64,000 nucleotides of DNA from positions 521,124 to 585,123 of the forward strand of contig NZ_FZPD01000005.1 in assembly GCF_900188325.1 (NCBI RefSeq). The letters are read 5' to 3'. Below, one piece after another: positions 2,319 to 54,953 of this stretch. Numbering within the stretch: position 1 is the first letter of the stretch; each line of letters opens with the position of its first letter. Under the pieces are notes generated by a model that saw only the letters and a list, made by a program, of their open reading frames with translations, was not told the DNA's origin and did not search any database. Position numbers and translations under genes: made by a program. The DNA is from Ekhidna lutea (lineage in GTDB: Bacteria > Bacteroidota > Bacteroidia > Cytophagales > Cyclobacteriaceae).

Positions 2319-3599
2319 ATGAGTATCTTAGAACTAATCACACTCCTAATTTTCATGGCCGCCGCTTTTACGCTAATCAATATTACCGTACTAAAGCTGC
2401 CATCCACAATCGGACTAATGTTGATCGCTCTTATCATGTCGATATCGATCCTGATATTGGGCTACTTTGTCCCCTCCATTACGGAAGGAGCAGAACATAT
2501 AATAGCCGAATTCGACTTTGAGGAAGTGCTCATGAATGTCATGCTGAACTTCCTGTTGTTTGCGGGTGCTTTATCAACCAACCTGAATAAGTTGATTGAA
2601 GAGCGGGTTCCGGTTATAATCCTCGCAACCATTGGTACGTTAATGTCCACGTTTTTAGTTGGTTTTCTCGTCTATAACATTTTCCCTTTACTGGGGTATG
2701 AAATCGATCTGATATACTGCTTGTTATTTGGTGCTTTAATATCACCTACAGATCCGATTGCAGTTTTAGCGCTTACTAAACAGTTTGGGCTTTCGAAGAA
2801 ATTAGAAATCAAGATTGCAGGTGAGTCGTTATTCAACGATGGTGTAGGGGTTGTAATATTCCTTACCATTTTAGGAATTGCCAAAGCTCAGGCGGGTATA
2901 CATGAGCCAGGTGGACATGGAGCAGGAGAGATAACCGCAGCTAGTGTTGCAATGCTATTTAGTGTTGAAGTGTTTGGTGGATTGCTGTTAGGAGCTGTCT
3001 TTGGCTTCTGTGGATTTAAGTTGCTCAACTTTATCGATAATGACCATGTGGAACTGGAAGTGCTGGTAACGCTTACACTCGTGATGGTGGGTGGGCGAAT
3101 CTCAGAAATGATCCACGTATCTGCACCACTTGCTATGGTGGTAATGGGACTTTTCATTGGTAATCAGGGTCGAGATGAAAAACTCGCTAACGCAACAGGA
3201 GAGTATGTATTCAAATTCTGGCATTTGTTGGATGAAGCCTTGAATGCAATCCTTTTCATACTTATCGGACTTGAAATGTTGGTAATTGCGGAATCATTTA
3301 CCGTGAGTAATCTGGCTATTGGAGGAATTGGAATTGTGATTGTATTATTTGCCAGGTTCATCGGTGTAAGTATTCCAATTACCGTGATGAAACGATTTAG
3401 AGAGTTTGAACCTAAAACCATTCAGATACTGACTTGGGGTGGACTTAGAGGAGGAATTTCAGTAGCGTTGGCACTATCGCTTACCGACATTGCTTTTCCG
3501 GATGAGGTGAAAGACACTATTCTATTCACCACCTATTGTGTGGTTGTATTCTCAATATTGGTTCAGGGAATGACTATAGGCTCTTTACTGAAAAAATAG
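2319..3599 (+). CDS. Na+(K+)/H+ antiporter, CPA1/NhaP type
   Basis: 426 residues, almost entirely about 12 hydrophobic transmembrane helices, as expected for the cation:proton antiporter 1 family. Family signatures seen are [14 protein letters not shown] in the helix that carries the ion-binding acidic residues, and [14 protein letters not shown] containing the conserved Asn-Asp pair. It exchanges cytoplasmic Na+ or K+ for external protons across the inner membrane, which supports pH and salt homeostasis and fits a marine lifestyle. The protein lacks the long cytoplasmic C-terminal extension found in some homologues. It is monocistronic or leads a short transcript with the GPP34 gene 82 bp downstream. 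Substrate preference cannot be read from the sequence. Confidence 0.9.
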
Positions 3600-3681
3600 G
3601 CGTTTACACGTGATGAATTCACTAAAATTTATGAAATTCGCCTTTTGAGAAACACATCAATTTTTTAAAAACTAACCAACT

Positions 3682-39821: not shown

Positions 39822-41093
39822 ATGAAATTTAAAAGCACAACAGGACAAGGACCTGAAGTCTCTTTCAGGGAGGCCGTTTTGAATAACCTACCAAATGATG
39901 GAGGACTTTATTTTCCGAAAGAAATCCGTCAATTGGAGAAGGGATTCATCAAGGAGATTCCTAAGATGCATCTTTCAGAAATCGCTTTTGAGGTGCTTTC
40001 CAAATTTTGCACTGCAGATATTCGTACAGATGAGCTAGAGGAAATCACCGAAAGAGTCTTCGATTTTCCAATTCCTCTGGTACAGGTGAACAACAAAACT
40101 CATTGTCTGGAATTGTTTCATGGACCAACCTTTGCCTTCAAGGACATTGGAGCGAAGTTTCTTGCCGAGTGCCTTGCTCACTTCAATGCAGGTGAGAATA
40201 AAGAAACGACCGTTTTGGTAGCTACATCAGGAGATACAGGCGGGGCAGTGGCTAATGGCTTTCTTGGAGTGGAAGGTGTGAGGGTTGTTATTCTTTACCC
40301 GAAAGGAAAAGTGAGCGAACTCCAGGAGAAACAGCTAACAACGCTGGGACAGAATATTACGGCCCTTGAGATTGAGGGTACATTTGATGACTGCCAAAAC
40401 CTGGTCAAGCAGGCATTTGCAGATGAGCAGCTAAATAAAAAGCTCCATTTATCTTCTGCTAATTCCATCAACATTGCCCGGTGGTTGCCTCAGTCATTGT
40501 TTTTTTATGTACCGCTTCAGCAAGGCTTTGAAGATGTGACGATTGCTGTTCCTAGCGGCAACTACGGAAATCTGACCTCTGGTGTGCTGGCAATGAAAAT
40601 GGGTGTGCCGATTAAGCAATTTGTTGCGGCGAGCAATGCAAATGATGTGGTGCCCAGGTATTTGCAGTCGGGGAATTATGAGCCAGAAGATACCATTCAG
40701 ACCATTGCGAATGCCATGGATGTTTCAGATCCCAGCAACTTCAAACGATTGCTTTCTTTGTTTGATAGGAGTTATCAGGACATAAAAAACCATCTGAAAC
40801 CATTTACATTGGATGACGATGCGATCAAGCAAACGATTCGTGAATGCCATCAAGCAAACGAATACCTGTTAGATCCGCATGGTGCGATTGCTTATGCAGC
40901 ACTGCATAATGCGGATGAAGAAGGAATATTCCTGGGGACGGCTCACTATTGCAAATTCCTTCCAACCTTGAAGGAAGCCTTAAGGGAGGAGGTACCCATT
41001 CCAGACTTTGCAAAAGACCTGATGACACGCAAAAAACAATCAACGCGAATGAAGGCAGACTATGCCTTGTTTAAAGAGTTTTTGAATAGCTAG
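39822..41093 (+). CDS. thrC: Threonine synthase
   Basis: 423 residues. ATG at 39822, 2 bp after the thrB stop. PLP-dependent fold type II: PLP-lysine motif HGPTFAFKDIGAKF, phosphate-binding ATSGDTGGAVANG and NSINIARWLPQSLFFY. It converts O-phosphohomoserine to threonine. Last gene of the thr operon, with a long symmetrical terminator overlapping its stop. Confidence 0.96.
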   Translation: MKFKSTTGQGPEVSFREAVLNNLPNDGGLYFPKEIRQLEKGFIKEIPKMHLSEIAFEVLSKFCTADIRTDELEEITERVFDFPIPLVQVNNKTHCLELFHGPTFAFKDIGAKFLAECLAHFNAGENKETTVLVATSGDTGGAVANGFLGVEGVRVVILYPKGKVSELQEKQLTTLGQNITALEIEGTFDDCQNLVKQAFADEQLNKKLHLSSANSINIARWLPQSLFFYVPLQQGFEDVTIAVPSGNYGNLTSGVLAMKMGVPIKQFVAASNANDVVPRYLQSGNYEPEDTIQTIANAMDVSDPSNFKRLLSLFDRSYQDIKNHLKPFTLDDDAIKQTIRECHQANEYLLDPHGAIAYAALHNADEEGIFLGTAHYCKFLPTLKEALREEVPIPDFAKDLMTRKKQSTRMKADYALFKEFLNS

Positions 41094-41139
41094 GACATAA
41101 AAAACCCTCCCAAATGGGAGGGTTTTTTATGTCCTAGCT
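41088..41139. terminator. Large bidirectional terminator between thrC and a lipoprotein gene
   Basis: A perfect 24-bp inverted repeat with a 4-base loop (AAAT): outer AGCTAGGACAT, an inner A6/T6 tract and CCCTCCC/GGGAGGG at the loop. Because the hairpin contains T-tracts on both strands it can end both the thr operon and the convergent lipoprotein gene. It includes the thrC stop codon. Confidence 0.9.
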
Positions 41140-41150
41140 GACTGATCTTA

Positions 41151-41945
41151 CTATGAAGGGCAGTCAGTATCATTAAGTGTTTTGTCCCAGCAGTGATAGG
41201 CTGTGTCTTCAAAATGTGCCTCACTTTTTACTCTACCTTCACCTGAAGGTTTGTTCCAATCAACTTCGATGGTATTTGAAGCGTTGGTATCTACAATTAC
41301 TACACTTCTGTTAAAGTCTGCATTCGCATCTGCAGTATAGGTGATGCTACTCTCAAAGAAATTTCCTTCTTTTTCCACATTAAATGTAGAAGTAGCAACT
41401 CCTGTTGCCTCATTATCACTCCAGTTTACCGACAACCACGCCGAAGGATTGTCCGGACTTTCATATAGCGTCCATGATCCTGCATCAGCATTAAGGTTTG
41501 ATTCGCCTTCAAACCACACGAAATCTTCGAATGATCCTGCTAGAGAGATGTATCCGGTCCAGTCTACGTTTGTGCCATCTACATCCGCTGTTAATCTCAC
41601 TGCATAAGATCCCTTATTAGGAACGCTGATATCGTACTCCCACACCCAAAGGTTTGTTTCTGTATTGTAAGTAGCATCCTGTTTCAGTCCAATCTTAAAA
41701 GCTGTAACAGGAACGGCCAGGTTTGAATACAAAATAGCTGAATATATTCCTACACTTGTTGCAGCATATGCCCAATTGTTTACCGTCTCAGCTCTTGCTC
41801 CATCATCTTCAAAATTTTCGAAGTTTGGTGCCATACTGGACTCAGGTGGCATATTCGGTTGGGGGTCCTGAGCAGCCTGGTCATCATCTGAACAGGACCA
41901 TAATAATGTCATCGGTATTAATGCAATTGCTAGTATCTTTTTCAT
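41151..41945 (-). CDS. Hypothetical lipoprotein with beta-rich domain
   Basis: 264 residues. Lipoprotein signal MKKILAIALIPMTLLWSCSDDD (lipobox WSC, Cys18), then a Pro/Asp-rich linker and a roughly 200-residue beta-rich region with many aromatic residues (YEYDISVPNKGSYAVRL-like strands, TWTGYISLAGSFEDFVW). It looks like a secreted jelly-roll or lipocalin-like protein. No family recognised and no catalytic motif. The acidic residues after the lipid Cys fit the surface-lipoprotein export signal of Bacteroidota. Confidence 0.8.
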   Translation of the reverse strand: MKKILAIALIPMTLLWSCSDDDQAAQDPQPNMPPESSMAPNFENFEDDGARAETVNNWAYAATSVGIYSAILYSNLAVPVTAFKIGLKQDATYNTETNLWVWEYDISVPNKGSYAVRLTADVDGTNVDWTGYISLAGSFEDFVWFEGESNLNADAGSWTLYESPDNPSAWLSVNWSDNEATGVATSTFNVEKEGNFFESSITYTADANADFNRSVVIVDTNASNTIEVDWNKPSGEGRVKSEAHFEDTAYHCWDKTLNDTDCPS

Positions 41946-42160
41946 TTTGATTTATTTTTTGGTTCGCCAGTTATACTTCAAGCGCTGTGCCAATCATAAA
42001 AATTCTATCCTTTTGCTTAAAAACGCATTTATATAGGTTTCATTTTCTCAAAATGAAAAAGCGCCATTCATAAACGAGAATCTAGCTTAGAACAATATTC
42101 AGAACCTGAACAGATCGAACGGATTGTCATCCAAGAACCAAGACGACTGCCCTGAAATCA
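41946..42160. other. Intergenic stretch left of the phased repeat
   Basis: The upstream region of the lipoprotein gene. Apart from a weak hairpin (TTCATTTTctcAAAATGAA at about 42037-42055) nothing is recognisable. No promoter with both boxes and no ORF. Confidence 0.4.
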
Positions 42161-42375
42161 TAGCCACCAACTGATAAGTTAGCGCTACCACTCAATGAGT
42201 GACAGCTACCACCGAAAAACGACAGCTACCATGTTAGTAATGGCAGCTACCACTAAAAATTCACAGCTACGGCATGAGAGATCACAGCTACCATAAGAAA
42301 ATTGCAGCTACCAACGAATGAATCACAGCTACCAGGAAAAAATTGCAGCTACCATAAAATGAATGACAGCTACGG
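42161..42375 (+). repeat. Phased array of 11 copies of a 9-bp motif (CAGCTACCA)
   Basis: The GCTACCA core starts at 42163, 42184, 42205, 42225, 42246, 42266, 42287, 42307, 42328, 42348 and 42369, giving spacings of 21, 21, 20, 21, 20, 21, 20, 21, 20 and 21 bp. Seven copies are exactly CAGCTACCA, two end in CGG and the first two are degenerate. The 11-12-bp spacers are AT-rich and alternate between two types, one with an A-tract (GAAAAAC, TAAAAAT, AGAAAAT, GAAAAAAT) and one with a GAATGA-like or GAGA-like core. A 41-bp higher-order unit is therefore visible. It is non-coding in all frames, and the period of 20.5 bp is close to two helical turns. Confidence 0.85.
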
Positions 42376-42390
42376 GGTATGGATGGAGCA

Positions 42391-42405
42391 CGGAAGTAAC
42401 TTCCG
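42391..42405. repeat. Short palindrome
   Basis: CGGAAGT a ACTTCCG is a perfect inverted repeat just after the phased array. Such palindromes often flank RAYT genes in Bacteroidota. Confidence 0.5.
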
Positions 42406-42450
42406 CGCTATTGGATAGCTGAGGCTCCTAATGCTCTATATTAAAACGTT

Positions 42451-42471
42451 ATTCCGGCCTTGTGCCGGAAT
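42451..42471. repeat. Short palindrome upstream of REP element 1
   Basis: ATTCCGGC cttgt GCCGGAAT, 8-bp perfect stem. Located 30 bp upstream of element 1. Confidence 0.5.
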
Positions 42472-42500
42472 CTTCAAGGCTTGGTTTCGACATCTTAAAC

Positions 42501-43161
42501 CCCCTCAGAGTCACCCCAGGGAAGGGGAGTGGGATAGCGGACTCTGAGGAATACAGGTAGCAGTATATTTGATCATGCCTACCCATCGAATACACGAAGA
42601 GAAAGAGACCTTCTATTTCACCACATTTACCTGTTACAAATGGCTTCCATTGCTGGAGCAGGCCGAGATTCATACGTATTAACTGGATAAATCAATTATC
42701 AAGCCGTAGACTCGTCACTTGTGGTTATGTCATGATGCCTAATCATTTACATCTGCTTGTATATGTTCAGAAGGACTGCAAAGGACTTAACAGTGTACTT
42801 GGAGAGGGTAAACGATTTATGGCTTATGAAATTATTTCAAGACTGAAAGACAAAAATGAAAAATCAATTTTGGCACAACTGGCTAAAGGTGTTCAGGTAA
42901 ATGAACGTTCAAAAGGGAAGAAGCATCAGGTATTTCGTTTGTCCTTTGATGCGAAAGCAGTTGTCGGGGATGAAAGCATCAACAAAGTGCTGGACTATAT
43001 GCATCATAACCACTGTGAGTGGCAAGTGGAATCTAGTTGAAGATTACACAAAGTATGCTTATTCAAGTGCAGGGTTTTATGAAAGAGAAGAAGAAGGAAT
43101 TGTTAAAGTTGAAGATTTTCGAGCAATGATCTCAGAGTCCTCTACGAGTGACTCTGAGGGG
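42501..43161 (+). mobile_element. REP/RAYT element, copy 1 (661 bp)
   Basis: The ends are inverted: CCCCTCAGAGTCAC at 42501-42514 and GTGACTCTGAGGGG at 43148-43161. Each end is itself a hairpin: CCTCAGAGTC (42503-42512) with GACTCTGAGG (42540-42549), and CTCAGAGTC (43131-43139) with GACTCTGAG (43150-43158). This is a REP pair flanking a Y1 HUH transposase gene. The element is inserted directly in front of the codon YIHANPV of a different RAYT tail. Copy 2 lies 168 bp downstream and is about 99% identical. Confidence 0.85.
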
Positions 43162-43164
43162 TAA
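42575..43164 (+). pseudogene. RAYT-type (Y1 transposase) gene, frameshifted, copy 1
   Basis: It starts MPTHRIHEEKETFYFTTFTCYKW and continues to AEIHTY, where TAA at 42680-42682 stops it. One base further, in the +1 frame, NWINQLSSRRLVTCGYVMMPNHLHLLVYV follows without gap, containing the HUH motif (HLH). A second shift at about 43010-43016 (AACCACTGTG where copy 2 has AACCTTGTG) puts the C-terminal SGKW...EDYTKYAYSSAGFY part into another frame. The C-terminal SESSTSDSEG is encoded by the REP hairpin. With two frameshifts it is unlikely to be active. Confidence 0.85.
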
Positions 43165-43284
43165 TACATCCATGCTAATCCGGTTGAAGCAGAAATTGTA
43201 GATAATGAGGAAGATTACTTATACAGTTCCGCACGAGATTATGGTGGCATCAAAGGATTGATCGATGTAGAGTTTTTAGATTGA
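43165..43284 (+). pseudogene. C-terminal remnant of another RAYT-type transposase
   Basis: 39 codons then TGA: YIHANPVEAEIVDNEEDYLYSSARDYGG, then a short tail. The YIHxNPVxAxIVxxxEDYxYSSAxDY pattern is the typical end of larger Bacteroidota RAYT/REP-associated transposases, different in sequence from the flanking 660-bp elements. It is cut exactly at the right end of element 1, so its 5' part was probably displaced or lost by that insertion. Confidence 0.8.
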
Positions 43285-43328
43285 GGCACGTGTTACAAAC
43301 GCGCACCAGCGTTGATTGAAGATTCCAC

Positions 43329-43988
43329 CCCCTCAGAGTCACCCCAGGGAAGGGGAGTGGGATAGCGGACTCTGAGGAATACAGGTAGCAGTATATTTGA
43401 TCATGCCCACACATCGAATACACGAAGAGAAAGAGACCTTCTATTTCACCACATTTACCTGTTACAAATGGCTTCCATTGCTGGAGCAGGCCGAGATTCA
43501 TACGTATTAACTGGATAAATCAATTATCAAGCCGTGGACTCGTCACTTGTGGTTATGTTATGATGCCTAATCATTTACATCTGCTTGTATATGTTCAGAA
43601 GGACTGCAAAGGACTTAACAGTGTACTTGGAGAGGGTAAACGATTTATGGCTTATGAAATTATTTCAAGACTGATAGACAAAAATGAAAAATCAATTTTG
43701 GCACAACTGGCTAAAGGTGTTCAGGTAAATGAACGTTCAAAAGGGAAGAAGCATCAGGTATTTCGTTTGTCCTTTGATGCGAAAGCAGTTGTCGGGGATG
43801 AAAGCATCAACAAAGTGCTGGACTATATGCATCATAACCTTGTGAGTGGCAAGTGGGATCTAGTTGAAGATTACACAAAGTATGCTTATTCAAGTGCAGG
43901 GTTTTATAAAAGAGAAGAAGAAGGAATTGTTAAAGTTGAAGATTTTCGAGCAATGATCTCAGAGTCCTCTACGAGTGACTCTGAGGGG
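43329..43988 (+). mobile_element. REP/RAYT element, copy 2 (660 bp)
   Basis: Inverted ends CCCCTCAGAGTCAC at 43329-43342 and GTGACTCTGAGGGG at 43975-43988, with hairpins at 43331-43377 and 43958-43985. It is almost identical to copy 1, and I count about eight differences, one of them the one-base length difference. No target-site duplication is visible, as expected for HUH transposition. Confidence 0.85.
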
Positions 43989-43991
43989 TAG
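43403..43991 (+). pseudogene. RAYT-type (Y1 transposase) gene, frameshifted, copy 2
   Basis: The same as copy 1: the first frame ends TAA after AEIHTY (43508-43510), and the rest continues in the +1 frame as NWINQL...MPNHLHLLVYV through NKVLDYMHHNLVSGKWDLVEDYTKYAYSS to SDSEG and TAG. Only one frameshift is present, so a single +1 shift would restore a complete protein of about 195 residues. Because both copies carry the shift it predates duplication, or it is programmed. Confidence 0.82.
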
Positions 43992-44111
43992 GAACTCCCA
44001 CGAGCTGAAGTATGTAGAAAGCACTACAATTATTTGGCGACAGATAAGCGGGATGTTCTGCAGGCACTTGGCATACAGCTAAGTAAGGCCATGTGCTATA
44101 TCGTTTGTTAG
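43992..44111 (+). other. Unrecognised ORF fragment after element 2
   Basis: One frame reads 39 codons (ELPRAEVCRKHYNYLATDKR...) to TAG at 44109-44111. The HYNYLATDKRDVLQALG part looks coding, possibly the end of a recombinase, but the match is too short to trust. The same bases contain an imperfect stem (GCACTTGGC/GCCATGTGC around 44067-44095) that might belong to an attC-like site. Confidence 0.3.
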
Positions 44112-44116
44112 AGCCT
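44106..44116 (+). repeat. Left half of an 11-bp inverted repeat bounding the envelope gene
   Basis: TGTTAGAGCCT at 44106-44116 pairs exactly with AGGCTCTAACA at 44809-44819, 692 bp away. The two copies lie just outside the stop and the start of the gene at 44121-44798. The GTTAG/CTAAC cores are as expected for ends of integron-type cassettes. Confidence 0.55.
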
Positions 44117-44120
44117 TTTA

Positions 44121-44798
44121 TTACATCAAATATGAGAGGCCAAATCGCACCACATATGAAAATGGGAGAAGATCAGAATCTGTTCTATCAACCCACTTTT
44201 GTTGTTCTTGGGGTATTTGACCAATGTAGACAGTCGATTCATAGCTATGAAAGTCAAGAAGCCCAAGCTTAGTGTTCAGGTCAAGTCCGATTCTAGATGT
44301 TACTTTATAAGTTATCCGAGGAACAAAATTTATAGTTGCTCCAAGGTATTCATCTTTGATTGGAATCTGTTGACGCTCAACAATTCGTTCAGCTTTAGAT
44401 TTGTAAATGTTAACACCAATACCGCTGAGTAATTTTAAGCGGTCATTGGTCCAAAGTTCTTTGTAAATCTCATAATGAATCGAAAAATAGAGTAAACTCC
44501 TTTTTTCATTTTCCGAAACTCTTGATTCGTGTTGAAATGGTTGACTTTCCGAGGCGTATGATAACTCCATTTCATGATACCAATCTTTATTGTTTTTAAT
44601 AGATAATGCAATTGATACTCTACTGAAGTTGCTGATTGAGTGTTTAGTTGTTAGGCGTTCTTGTGTCTCGTAGTTGTAAATATTCTCCGCTCGTTGGTAA
44701 AAATCAGAGTTGTGATAAGCTTTAATATAATACTTGTTCTGACTAGATAGAGTTGAACAACTGAGAAAAGCTATAAGTAAGACAAATATCTGTTTCAT
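44121..44798 (-). CDS. Hypothetical exported beta-barrel-like protein
   Basis: 225 residues from the ATG at 44798, which gives a Sec signal (MKQIFVLLIAFLSCSTLSSQ). A GTG two codons upstream is also in frame. The mature part has amphipathic strand patterns such as FSRVSIALSIKNNKDWYHEMELSYAS and LLYFSIHYEIYKEL, ending YVVRFGLSYLM, typical of small outer-membrane beta-barrels. No family recognised. It is bounded by an 11-bp inverted repeat and stands alone beside mobile-element debris, so it may be a recent acquisition. Confidence 0.72.
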   Translation of the reverse strand: MKQIFVLLIAFLSCSTLSSQNKYYIKAYHNSDFYQRAENIYNYETQERLTTKHSISNFSRVSIALSIKNNKDWYHEMELSYASESQPFQHESRVSENEKRSLLYFSIHYEIYKELWTNDRLKLLSGIGVNIYKSKAERIVERQQIPIKDEYLGATINFVPRITYKVTSRIGLDLNTKLGLLDFHSYESTVYIGQIPQEQQKWVDRTDSDLLPFSYVVRFGLSYLM

Positions 44799-53135: not shown

Positions 53136-54953
53136 CTATTCAATCTTTGAAATTAAGTCCGCAAAGTAAGATTTTTTTTCGGGATATTTCAAGCTTAATG
53201 CTTCATAGATTTCGATTGCACGCTTTTTATTTCCCTGATGCAGATAAATTTCAGCTAAATATTCGGAGGCAAGGTTAGGATCCCACGCTGCACTCTCCTC
53301 TGCTAAGTCTTCAGCCTTTATATCTTCCTTGCGCTGATACTTTATGGTGGGTGATTCTTTTATGAATTTATCAATAATGTCCTGCTGGTCCTTGCGATCA
53401 GCTTTGTCATCATCTTTTTTCTCCTCCTTTTTATCTTTTGCAGTAGTCTTTGCTCGAGTGCCTTTTTTTGATGACTCCTTTTCTTTTTTTGAAACAGCTT
53501 CTTTTTTTGTGGAGGTTTTCTTTTTAGTGGCTTTCTTTTCTGTAGTAGCTTTAGTTGATGACTTTTTCTTTGTTTCTGTCTTCTTCGTTTCCTTTTTAGA
53601 AGTGCTTTTCTTTTCTTTTTTTTCTACGGCAGTTGCTTTTTCAGTTTGCTTGGGCTTTTCCTCTTTCTCATCCTTTTTAGTAGTAGGCTTATCATCTTCC
53701 GCTGACTTTTCTTCCTTTTTAGCACTTTTTTTTCTGGGATTCTTTCGAGCTACTGGCTTTGCCTTAGATAAGTCAGGGAGCTTTATTTTTTCTTCTTCTC
53801 CTTCTTTCTTTTCGTCTTGTTTTTTAGATGGTTGCTCTTTTGCCTTAGGTTTTTCCTCTTTCTCTTCAGGCAATTTTGACAAATCCGTCTCTTCAGGTGA
53901 TTTTAGATAGCTTCTTGTTGAGAAACGTGAGAATCGAGGTTCACGAATCACCCGTTCTGCTCTCGCATTTTCCTCAGGTTCTTCTTCCTTAGGTGATGTA
54001 GGTTTATCTGCTTCTCTTTTTTCCTCCTTTATAGTGGAAGGTTTTTCTTCTTCCGCTTTAGGTGTATCCCTAGCCTCTTCTTCTGCTTGTTCTTCCTGCT
54101 TTATTTTGTCTTTTAACTTCTCTAGTTCTTCCTTTTGGGTGTCTTTTTCTTCAATGGAAGGTTTTTCCTGGGTTTTCTGTTCCTCCGGGTCTGACTTTAA
54201 AGAAACCTTTTCAAGTGCTGTTGAGATTGCATCATCTTCTTCAATTTTCTGTTGGACCTCCGCAAATTTTTCACGGGATGCCTTCAGATTCTCCATATCA
54301 CGCTGCAGCTCTTCCAGAATAGAGTCAAGCTCTCCACTAGGTACCTCAGGGATTTCAGGTTGTGGTTTTTGTTCCTTTTCCTTTATTGAACTTGGACGCA
54401 CATCCTTTCTGACTTTTTCTTCTTTGGGAGGTGATATCTTAGGTTCAAGACTTTTAGGTTGCTCAGTACCTACAGCCTCTTGAATTGGTGGTTTGTCTTC
54501 TTTCTTTTGTTCTGCCGGCTCTGAAGGTTTCTTGGCAGCTACTTTTTCTACCGGTTGTTCAGCAGGAATTTTTTGTTCAGGTGCAGATTTTACCTCTGGG
54601 GTTGCTTTTTCCTGAGTAGGGGGCTTGGTCTCTGGGGTTTTGGCCTTCTGGGTCTGAGATGATGTATCAGACTCTTTTTTAGTCTCAGTTTCCGGAGCAG
54701 GAGGGTGTGAAAGAAAAAACAGGTTACCGTTCAGGTATTTCTTAAGTAAAATCCGATCTGTTGAATATATAGCGGCAGATGCCACTCTTTTCTTAGTTTT
54801 AGGATGCTTTTGCTCTTTGCTGGCTTTTGCCAATAACAACCGAGCGCTAAGAAAATAGGGATATTCACTTACAATGCCTTCCAGCTTTTCTAACTGCTCG
54901 CCGGAAAGCTTGCTTGGATCTCTTAGATAGGTGATTAACTCGGTTTTGTTCAC
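53136..54953 (-). CDS. Lys/Glu-rich low-complexity protein with TPR-like ends
   Basis: 605 residues. Residues 1-80 are helical (LEKLEGIVSEYPYFLSARLLLAKASKEQ) and the last 80 have a TPR-like module (PNLASEYLAEIYLHQGNKKRAIEIYEALSLKYPEKKSYFADLI). The 430 residues in between are dominated by Lys, Glu, Pro, Ser and Thr with KKEEK and KKxTKK repeats, so they are disordered and highly charged. In this operon position other Bacteroidota have a shorter TPR protein. No signal peptide, so probably cytoplasmic. It sits between lptE and secG. Confidence 0.78.
   Translation of the reverse strand: MNKTELITYLRDPSKLSGEQLEKLEGIVSEYPYFLSARLLLAKASKEQKHPKTKKRVASAAIYSTDRILLKKYLNGNLFFLSHPPAPETETKKESDTSSQTQKAKTPETKPPTQEKATPEVKSAPEQKIPAEQPVEKVAAKKPSEPAEQKKEDKPPIQEAVGTEQPKSLEPKISPPKEEKVRKDVRPSSIKEKEQKPQPEIPEVPSGELDSILEELQRDMENLKASREKFAEVQQKIEEDDAISTALEKVSLKSDPEEQKTQEKPSIEEKDTQKEELEKLKDKIKQEEQAEEEARDTPKAEEEKPSTIKEEKREADKPTSPKEEEPEENARAERVIREPRFSRFSTRSYLKSPEETDLSKLPEEKEEKPKAKEQPSKKQDEKKEGEEEKIKLPDLSKAKPVARKNPRKKSAKKEEKSAEDDKPTTKKDEKEEKPKQTEKATAVEKKEKKSTSKKETKKTETKKKSSTKATTEKKATKKKTSTKKEAVSKKEKESSKKGTRAKTTAKDKKEEKKDDDKADRKDQQDIIDKFIKESPTIKYQRKEDIKAEDLAEESAAWDPNLASEYLAEIYLHQGNKKRAIEIYEALSLKYPEKKSYFADLISKIE

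What the first reader, a model, noticed from the sequence alone, without database searches (positions are those of the whole stretch)
42161..42375. Eleven-copy helically phased 9-bp motif array of unknown function
CAGCTACCA recurs with an alternating 20/21-bp step over 200 bp, while spacers differ in sequence but alternate in type. Two helical turns per step place all motifs on one face of the DNA. The alternating spacer types show a 41-bp unit underneath. This could be a multimer-binding protein array (iteron-like or nucleoid protein), a structural (bent) DNA element because of the phased A-tracts, or an old tandem repeat. It does not match any known repeat I can name.
Basis: seen in the sequence. 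Interest (0 to 1): 0.72.

Follow-up and report, generated by a model that had tools for sequence, protein, structure and literature searches.

The report
Two-turn DNA arrays paired with PQLLE proteins
This row of eleven short DNA motifs, spaced two turns of the double helix apart, carries the same motif as a row beside a gene elsewhere in the same genome; relatives of that gene in many bacteria mostly sit next to such a row, with a sequence that differs between lineages, and the gene's protein, predicted to be a long rod, likely grips the row.

Summary
The array is real: 11 units at 42161-42375, 7 of them perfect CAGCTACCA, every step 20 or 21 bp. It is not a lone decayed satellite. The same array occurs at two other places in this genome and in three related genomes; at three of these loci it ends 40-43 bp before a gene for a PQLLE-family protein (NCBIfam NF052641), whose function is unknown. 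The pairing is general: 67 of 90 PQLLE-superfamily loci tested have an adjacent array, and of 738 measured steps 635 are 21 bp and 90 are 20 bp. In 26 longer regions, 18 of 21 PQLLE ORFs but 13 of 294 other ORFs had one. The motif differs between lineages and follows protein divergence. The protein is an internal duplication predicted (pLDDT 95.6) to be two long helices with small helical ends. Best explanation: the protein assembles along its own array, one unit per two helical turns; stray arrays, such as this one, are extra sites or module remnants. Binding is inferred, not shown; the protein is acidic, without a recognised DNA-binding domain, and some stray arrays are parts of dispersed repeats. 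No paper found describes this pairing.

The parts
42161..42375 (+). Array of 11 CAGCTACCA-type units at 20/21-bp steps
42203..42252 (+). Three consecutive perfect CAGCTACCA units (42203, 42223, 42244)
42285..42354 (+). Four consecutive perfect CAGCTACCA units (42285, 42305, 42326, 42346)
42161..42190 (+). Degenerate leading units TAGCCACCA and GCGCTACCA (21-bp step)
42385..42428 (+). Branched inverted-repeat tail (outer arms GGAGC/GCTCC, then a hairpin, then TATTGGAT); weakly resembles the sequence after the stop codon of the PQLLE gene in G000:C6
   Evidence: weak lead only
41151..41945 (-). 264-aa lipoprotein-like ORF (lipoprotein by eye) whose start lies about 215 bp from the array; no Pfam match
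42500..43991 (+). Two tandem, by eye near-identical copies of a REP-associated tyrosine-transposase-like element, apparently a neighbour and not part of the array

Best explanation
This array carries the same motif as the DNA half of an apparent two-part module whose other half is a PQLLE-family protein, a predicted rod that likely binds the units in a row along one face of the helix. Shown: the arrays and their two-turn step; their position beside PQLLE genes in many lineages; a motif that changes as the protein changes; and an internal duplication in the protein. Predicted: each half of the protein has short helices and one 56-residue helix. Inferred: the two long helices pack antiparallel (from alignments to hairpin-like coiled coils); a subunit or half-subunit occupies each 20-21-bp step; and neighbours contact each other to form a phased nucleoprotein filament, so that an array of about eleven units works as one high-avidity address. 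The array in this window has no PQLLE gene beside it. It would be either a second site reached in trans by the PQLLE protein encoded on another contig of the same genome (G000:C6), or a module copy that has lost its gene, as the copy on C11 near 321.4 kb, with only a broken remnant of the gene, has. What the filament does for the cell (control of its own gene, bridging or positioning of chromosomal loci) is not determined.
For: Same motif and step in seven arrays of four genomes (G000, G006, G016, Reichenbachiella agariperforans): every step 20 or 21, means 20.29-20.6. PQLLE genes follow the array at L009 and L028 and L059. Unconstrained lag scan: 44 of 70 testable upstream regions (72 loci) have z >= 5, and all 44 best lags are multiples of 20-21 bp. 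TRF plus chaining: 67 of 90 loci have an array. Control: 18 of 21 PQLLE ORFs versus 13 of 294 other ORFs (an array adjacent to the PQLLE gene was not credited to its other neighbours). Motif similarity falls with protein identity: 0.74 at 60% or more, 0.53 at 50-60%, 0.43 at 45-50%, and a floor of 0.29-0.32 below 40%; Mantel 0 of 999 permutations. Cross-genome pairs with 60% or more identity keep the motif in 9 of 9 cases. The protein halves are homologous (HHalign 99.1%, 104 columns); AlphaFold2 pLDDT 95.6. The end of the first long helix and the middle loop are basic even in acidic members (+2.8 and +2.3). Copy L010 keeps the array (79% identical over 197 bp) and a remnant of the gene.
Against: No binding data. 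The proteins beside CAGCTACCA arrays are acidic overall (pI about 5), and the fold and profile searches gave no significant match. 23 of 90 loci have no detectable array, 9 of them in two genomes, G021 and G034. Genome G006 keeps a CAGCTACCA array (L026), but its only PQLLE matches are two distant ones. No Bacteroidetes-type promoter consensus (recalled) is enriched between array and gene (0 of 59), so autoregulation is unsupported. At 50-60% identity 5 of 15 cross-genome pairs, and at 50% or more identity 5 of 9 paralog pairs, do not share a motif. The segment of the protein that tracks the motif could not be localised.
Confidence: 0.5

Rival explanations
1. The arrays are structural pieces of dispersed, mobile-element-like repeats. 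The PQLLE gene is the element's own gene or a passenger, and stray arrays such as this one are non-autonomous or decayed copies without present function.
For: In Marinoscillum furvescens (G016), three arrays (C33, and two on C17, one of them beside a truncated PQLLE gene) share roughly 140 bp of 5' flank that contains a hairpin, and 3' flank is shared too, also with the C16 array. L010 is a copy of array plus broken gene. No partner gene recurs at 37 loci, i.e. the module seems to stand alone. The window array lies next to a transposase-like element.
Against: No recombinase family match in the protein. Outside the array, the flanks of the window, L026 and L027 arrays match no other flank compared, except for a 31-bp inverted match (E 0.005) between the window and L010 flanks. 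Motif conservation across genera at 54-61% protein identity, and strict 20/21 phase in stray arrays, point to selection on the array itself.
Confidence: 0.25
2. Another DNA-binding protein (a nucleoid or regulatory factor) reads the arrays and controls the PQLLE gene; the PQLLE protein itself does not bind.
For: PQLLE proteins of this clade are acidic and matched no known DNA-binding domain. 59 of 67 arrays lie upstream of the gene.
Against: Several different motifs coexist in one genome, each beside its own paralog (G016: L029, L044, L049, L052), which a single shared factor does not explain. Eight of 67 arrays lie downstream. No partner gene recurs next to the pair.
Confidence: 0.13
3. Intrinsic DNA curvature or flexibility element: the sequence acts through shape, not through a bound protein.
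For: A-rich 11-nt spacers recur at about 41 bp, in phase with the helix.
Against: Some arrays of the same class are GC-rich or lack A-tracts (e.g. L044, L049, L090); mean A+T of the 59 upstream arrays is 0.52, versus 0.63 for the linkers. Curvature itself was not computed.
Confidence: 0.05
4. Neutral tandem repeat (minisatellite) in decay.
For: Units differ from one another; two leading units are degenerate.
Against: Recurrence in unrelated contexts, association with one protein family, cross-genus motif conservation and fixed two-turn step.
Confidence: 0.04

Closest known systems
ParR/parC type II plasmid partition (e.g. pSK41 20-bp repeats; C. perfringens parC families, PMC9426499, passages read)
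   Same: Direct repeats, in pSK41 of about two helical turns, beside the genes of the system that reads them; different families of sites and proteins in one cell, with specific pairing.
   Different: ParR is typically a ribbon-helix-helix protein with a ParM partner on plasmids (PMC9426499); the PQLLE model has no beta strand, no partner gene was seen to recur, and no plasmid or phage record matched the one query used.
Plasmid iterons with Rep initiator proteins (recalled)
   Same: Tandem sites about 19-22 bp apart on one face of the helix, next to the gene of the binding protein.
   Different: No Rep-like family match, several loci per genome, no plasmid match, motif can differ between paralogs.
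BrickBuilt MITE of Porphyromonas gingivalis (PMC4596501, abstract and passages read)
   Same: Intergenic tandem-repeat array in Bacteroidota, dispersed in many copies.
   Different: 23-nt unit with terminal inverted repeats; no associated protein family is described in the passages read.
TAACTGA direct repeats (PMC4679880, abstract and passages read)
   Same: Short intergenic direct repeats found in several phyla including Bacteroidetes, often before start codons.
   Different: Direct heptamers of one motif; upstream of genes with no common predicted function, according to the abstract.
NCBIfam NF052641 'PQLLE family protein'
   Same: The gene beside the CAGCTACCA array on C6 is a member (253 bits; cut-off 80).

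Membership tests
PQLLE family (NF052641), for the gene paired with this motif at G000:C6 | Score above the curated cut-off over the full model | tested here: met
   253 bits versus 80, model positions 1-211 of 211
PQLLE module, for the window locus itself | PQLLE gene beside the array | tested here: not met
   tblastn of two PQLLE proteins against window 41001-44500 gave one hit, E 0.23, inside another ORF
ParR/parC partition | Ribbon-helix-helix adaptor (needs a beta strand) | tested here: not met
   DSSP on a pLDDT 95.6 model shows helices only
ParR/parC partition | NTPase partner gene (ParM-like) next to the adaptor | tested here: inconclusive
   all-against-all BLASTP of 244 neighbour ORFs at 37 loci shows scattered matches but no gene recurring at a fixed place; neighbours were not scanned for ParM as such
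ParR/parC partition and iterons | Carried on plasmids or phages | tested here: not met
   no tblastn match at 1e-3 with one query in 72,556 plasmid and 50,697 phage records; no relative confirmed in viral contigs; divergent members could be missed
Iteron/Rep | Replication initiator fold | tested here: inconclusive
   no significant fold match; absence from the list excludes nothing
Protein-coding tandem repeat | Step a multiple of three | tested here: not met
   alternating 20/21 steps here; in the class 90 of 738 steps are 20 bp, but 50 of 67 arrays are 21-only or nearly so
Curved-DNA element | A-tracts phased with the helix, as a property of the class | tested here: inconclusive
   Present here about once per 41 bp, absent from several arrays of the class; curvature not computed
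BrickBuilt-type MITE | 23-nt unit | tested here: not met
   (20/21 bp); terminal inverted repeats were not searched for
PQLLE protein as array-binding protein | Specific binding to its own array | not testable with these tools
   needs EMSA, footprinting or ChIP

The most novel reading that the evidence does not exclude
A previously undescribed class of chromosomal address system: a lone rod-shaped protein with a duplicated body assembles along an array of sites set exactly two helical turns apart, each paralog has its own motif code, and stray arrays such as the one in this window are extra anchor points that the same protein joins in trans, so one cell can run several such address systems side by side.
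Probability: 0.3. Interest if true: 0.87.

Novelty: categorically new. Interest (0 to 1): 0.73.

Why it matters
A protein family that NCBIfam lists only as 'PQLLE family protein' gains a candidate DNA partner, and a class of intergenic repeats that looks like noise gains a candidate protein partner. Because the motif differs between lineages while the two-turn step does not, the pairs would be natural, mutually distinct protein-DNA address systems. If binding is confirmed they would show a new way to organise or mark bacterial chromosomes and would supply new DNA-binding scaffolds of known repeat geometry. The claim is directly testable with one purified protein and two DNA fragments.

Tried and rejected

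Partner gene: BLASTP among neighbours gave scattered matches, for example a domain of about 100 aa shared by neighbours at positions -4 to +1 of five loci (L117, L118, L120, L121, L122), but no gene recurring at a fixed place; the ORF calling was crude and some loci had only 0.5-3 kb of flank. Bacteroidetes promoter in the linker: not enriched, 0 of 59 full and 4 of 59 for the -7 box versus 4.7 expected. Protein segment that determines the motif: no clear signal. Selection for different motifs between paralogs of one genome (identity 50% or more): 4 of 9 paralog pairs keep the motif versus 19 of 24 cross-genome pairs, Fisher p 0.068 with non-independent pairs; suggestive only and not claimed. 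An early, harsher motif measure made this contrast look stronger than it is. The tail similarity between the window and the C6 gene (GGAG..TATTGGAT) is a weak lead: 13 hits in the genome versus 3 for the reversed control. Matches to the neighbouring lipoprotein-like ORF in 4 relatives (33-35% identity) have no array at the 0.60 threshold in the fetched stretch (best 0.52 at lag 20 in L125); probably not orthologs, so uninformative.

Rows dropped before counts: 98 loci entered the set; 8 were left out by hand after seeing the and earlier output (L085, L094, L095, L097, L140, L144, L151, L154: low-complexity or other repeat types, or a contig start; some of these do have 42-bp repeats). Eleven family matches had no fetched locus and were not tested. 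The step counts come from a chaining that penalises 19, 22 and 40-42 bp; the lag scan has no such bias. Of the 13 non-PQLLE ORFs with an array, 7 flank the window, L010, L026 and L027 arrays, in regions that were fetched or given because they carry arrays; the other 6 are in L104 and L111.

Full report
Observation. The array is as described: 11 units from 42161 to 42375, steps 21,21,20,21,20,21,20,21,20,21, seven perfect CAGCTACCA. The repeat signal exceeds all 2000 local shuffles (72 versus a maximum of 52 of 100 matches), and the 11 positions are in phase at 10.25-10.3 bp per turn (coherence 0.98). The spacers are 11 or 12 nt and alternate from the second one on, so the larger unit is 41 bp.

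It recurs. A search of the own genome with two cores 10-13 bp apart found 13 matches at three places: C6 near 749.3 kb, C11 near 321.4 kb and the window; the reversed control gave none. Reichenbachiella agariperforans has it too (L059). In these seven arrays of four genomes every step is 20 or 21 bp; units per array are 11, 11, 10, 11, 11, 13 and 8.

A gene goes with it. On C6 the array ends 40 bp before an ORF of 216 aa (L009:9503-10153). In G016 (L028) and Reichenbachiella (L059) the last unit ends 43 and 41 bp before a gene of the same family. The C6 protein is a member of NCBIfam NF052641, 'PQLLE family protein' (253 bits, cut-off 80), with no Pfam match above a cut-off. The C11 copy at 321.4 kb (L010) has an array 79% identical to that of C6 over 197 bp and, after it, a broken remnant of the gene with the C-terminal QLLEILG stretch. 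The window array has no PQLLE gene or convincing remnant by tblastn (best E 0.23).

The pairing is general. Scanning 700 bp upstream of 72 PQLLE-superfamily genes for any lag from 12 to 69 bp, 44 of 70 testable regions scored z >= 5, and all 44 had a best lag that is a multiple of 20-21 bp; on the downstream side 12 of 69 scored so, 9 of them with such a lag. With more loci, 67 of 90 had a chained array, 59 upstream and 8 downstream; of 738 steps, 635 are 21 bp, 90 are 20, 9 are 22, 2 are 19 and 2 are 42 (with a penalty on the rarer steps). In 26 regions of 470 kb in all, 18 of 21 PQLLE ORFs but only 13 of 294 other ORFs of 150 aa or more had such an array nearby, arrays adjacent to the PQLLE gene not being credited to its neighbours; 7 of these 13 flank arrays for which the region had been fetched or given. 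The median number of units per array is 11, range 5 to 35. Arrays were seen beside PQLLE genes of Bacteroidota and of MAGs labelled Aminicenantes, Melioribacteraceae and Chitinispirillaceae; PQLLE genes are uncommon (15 of 395 phylum genomes at E <= 0.001, 6 over the cut-off).

The motif belongs to the protein. Different lineages mostly have unrelated motifs, and one genome can have several (G016: L029, L044, L049, L052). Motif similarity falls with protein identity: 0.74 at 60% or more, 0.53 at 50-60%, 0.43 at 45-50%, 0.40 at 40-45%, and a floor of 0.29-0.32 below 40%; Mantel rho 0.125, 0 of 999 permutations. Cross-genome pairs with 60% or more identity keep the motif in 9 of 9 cases, 50-60% in 10 of 15, 45-50% in 3 of 16; paralog pairs of one genome in 2 of 5, 2 of 4 and 1 of 1. 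The C6, G016 and Reichenbachiella proteins share only 54-61% identity, yet the core CAGCTACCA is the same.

The protein. The two halves are homologous (HHalign 99.1%, 104 columns, 27% identity). AlphaFold2 on a 46-sequence alignment gives pLDDT 95.6 and only helices: H6-22, H24-31, H37-92, H97-102, then the same pattern again at H113-129, H131-138, H144-199, H204-209. Structural matches are unspecific; many rows are long coiled coils that, as I recall them, are antiparallel hairpins, such as colicin receptor domains and SMC arms. A distant member with a 21-bp array (L052) shows the same helix pattern in its C-terminal half (pLDDT 86.6). A 56-residue helix is about 84 angstrom long and 20.5 bp of B-DNA about 70 angstrom (arithmetic from textbook values), so one rod could bridge adjacent units; this is inference. 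The far end of the first long helix and the middle loop are basic in both the acidic and the basic members, while the C-terminus is acidic.

Stray arrays. Besides the window, L026 and L027 are gene-less. In M. furvescens further arrays lie on C14, C16, C17 (two, one beside a truncated PQLLE gene) and C33. The C14 array has the motif of L052. C33 and the two C17 arrays share roughly 140 bp of 5' flank with a hairpin (perfect in two, one mismatch in the third), and shared 3' flank extends to C16, so some stray arrays are parts of larger dispersed repeats. In G009 an array 1.6 kb from the PQLLE gene has the same motif as a single degenerate copy next to that gene.

Mechanism. The constant two-turn step with a variable sequence is what a protein lattice on one face of the DNA would require; the covariation of motif and protein makes the adjacent PQLLE protein the likely reader; the duplicated protein body matches the duplicated 41/42-bp unit. 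Against it stand the acidity of this clade's proteins, the missing DNA-binding domain, array-less PQLLE genes (23 of 90), a genome that keeps the array without a close PQLLE gene (G006) and the absence of a recognisable promoter between array and gene. I rate protein-on-array binding at about one half, and the mobile-repeat reading at one quarter; the two can both be true.

Known or not. Full-text searches of the held open-licence library (most subscription journals are missing from it) for PQLLE (0 papers), for 21-bp or helically phased arrays in Bacteroidetes and similar terms and for DUF6261 listed no description of this pairing; of the listed papers I opened only those named here. The closest published architectures are ParR/parC (PMC9426499, passages read), and, as repeats only, BrickBuilt (PMC4596501, abstract and passages read) and TAACTGA repeats (PMC4679880, abstract and passages read). 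None is the same.

Noticed in passing
window 42500-43165 and 43330-43991: Two tandem, by eye near-identical copies of a REP-associated tyrosine-transposase-like element with CCTCAGAGTC/GACTCTGAGG palindromes; the listed ORF is shorter in the first copy (102 versus 143 aa), and the second copy, the only one scanned with NCBIfam, matches NF047646 weakly (33.9 bits, cut-off 80).
   Followed up: partly
L172 ~780-1551, L174 ~1800-2420 and ~3120-3670, L175 ~2345-2760 (Marinoscillum furvescens): Arrays of motif CTTCCGCCYGTGGTTTGGAG sit in dispersed repeats; three of them share a 5' flank with a CTTGTTGGAG-TTGT-CTCCAACAAG hairpin (one copy with a mismatch).
   Followed up: partly
L009:10275-12065: NTPase-like ORF (NACHT-like by eye) directly downstream of the PQLLE gene on C6, weak PADLOC match (PDC-S60, E 2.6e-9); not seen to recur at other PQLLE loci.
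   Followed up: partly
L099 upstream region: Three successive arrays of 21-, 42- and 63-bp period with three different motifs upstream of one distant PQLLE-like gene.
   Followed up: no
G021 and G034 (L032, L033, L042, L043, L047, L048, L050, L051, L053, L054, L056, L057): Two genomes with many PQLLE paralogs, mostly basic where computed (10 of 11 with pI about 9; L048 not computed), most with weak or no arrays, unlike the acidic CAGCTACCA clade.
   Followed up: partly
L085 and L094 (G205): 42-bp arrays of GTCATTCAGAGCGAAGCGAAGAATCC beside distant PQLLE-like genes; resembles a common REP-like repeat (recalled), left out of the counts.
   Followed up: no
window 53463-53655: A second, weaker tandem repeat in the window (18-bp lag), unrelated to the array class.
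   Followed up: no
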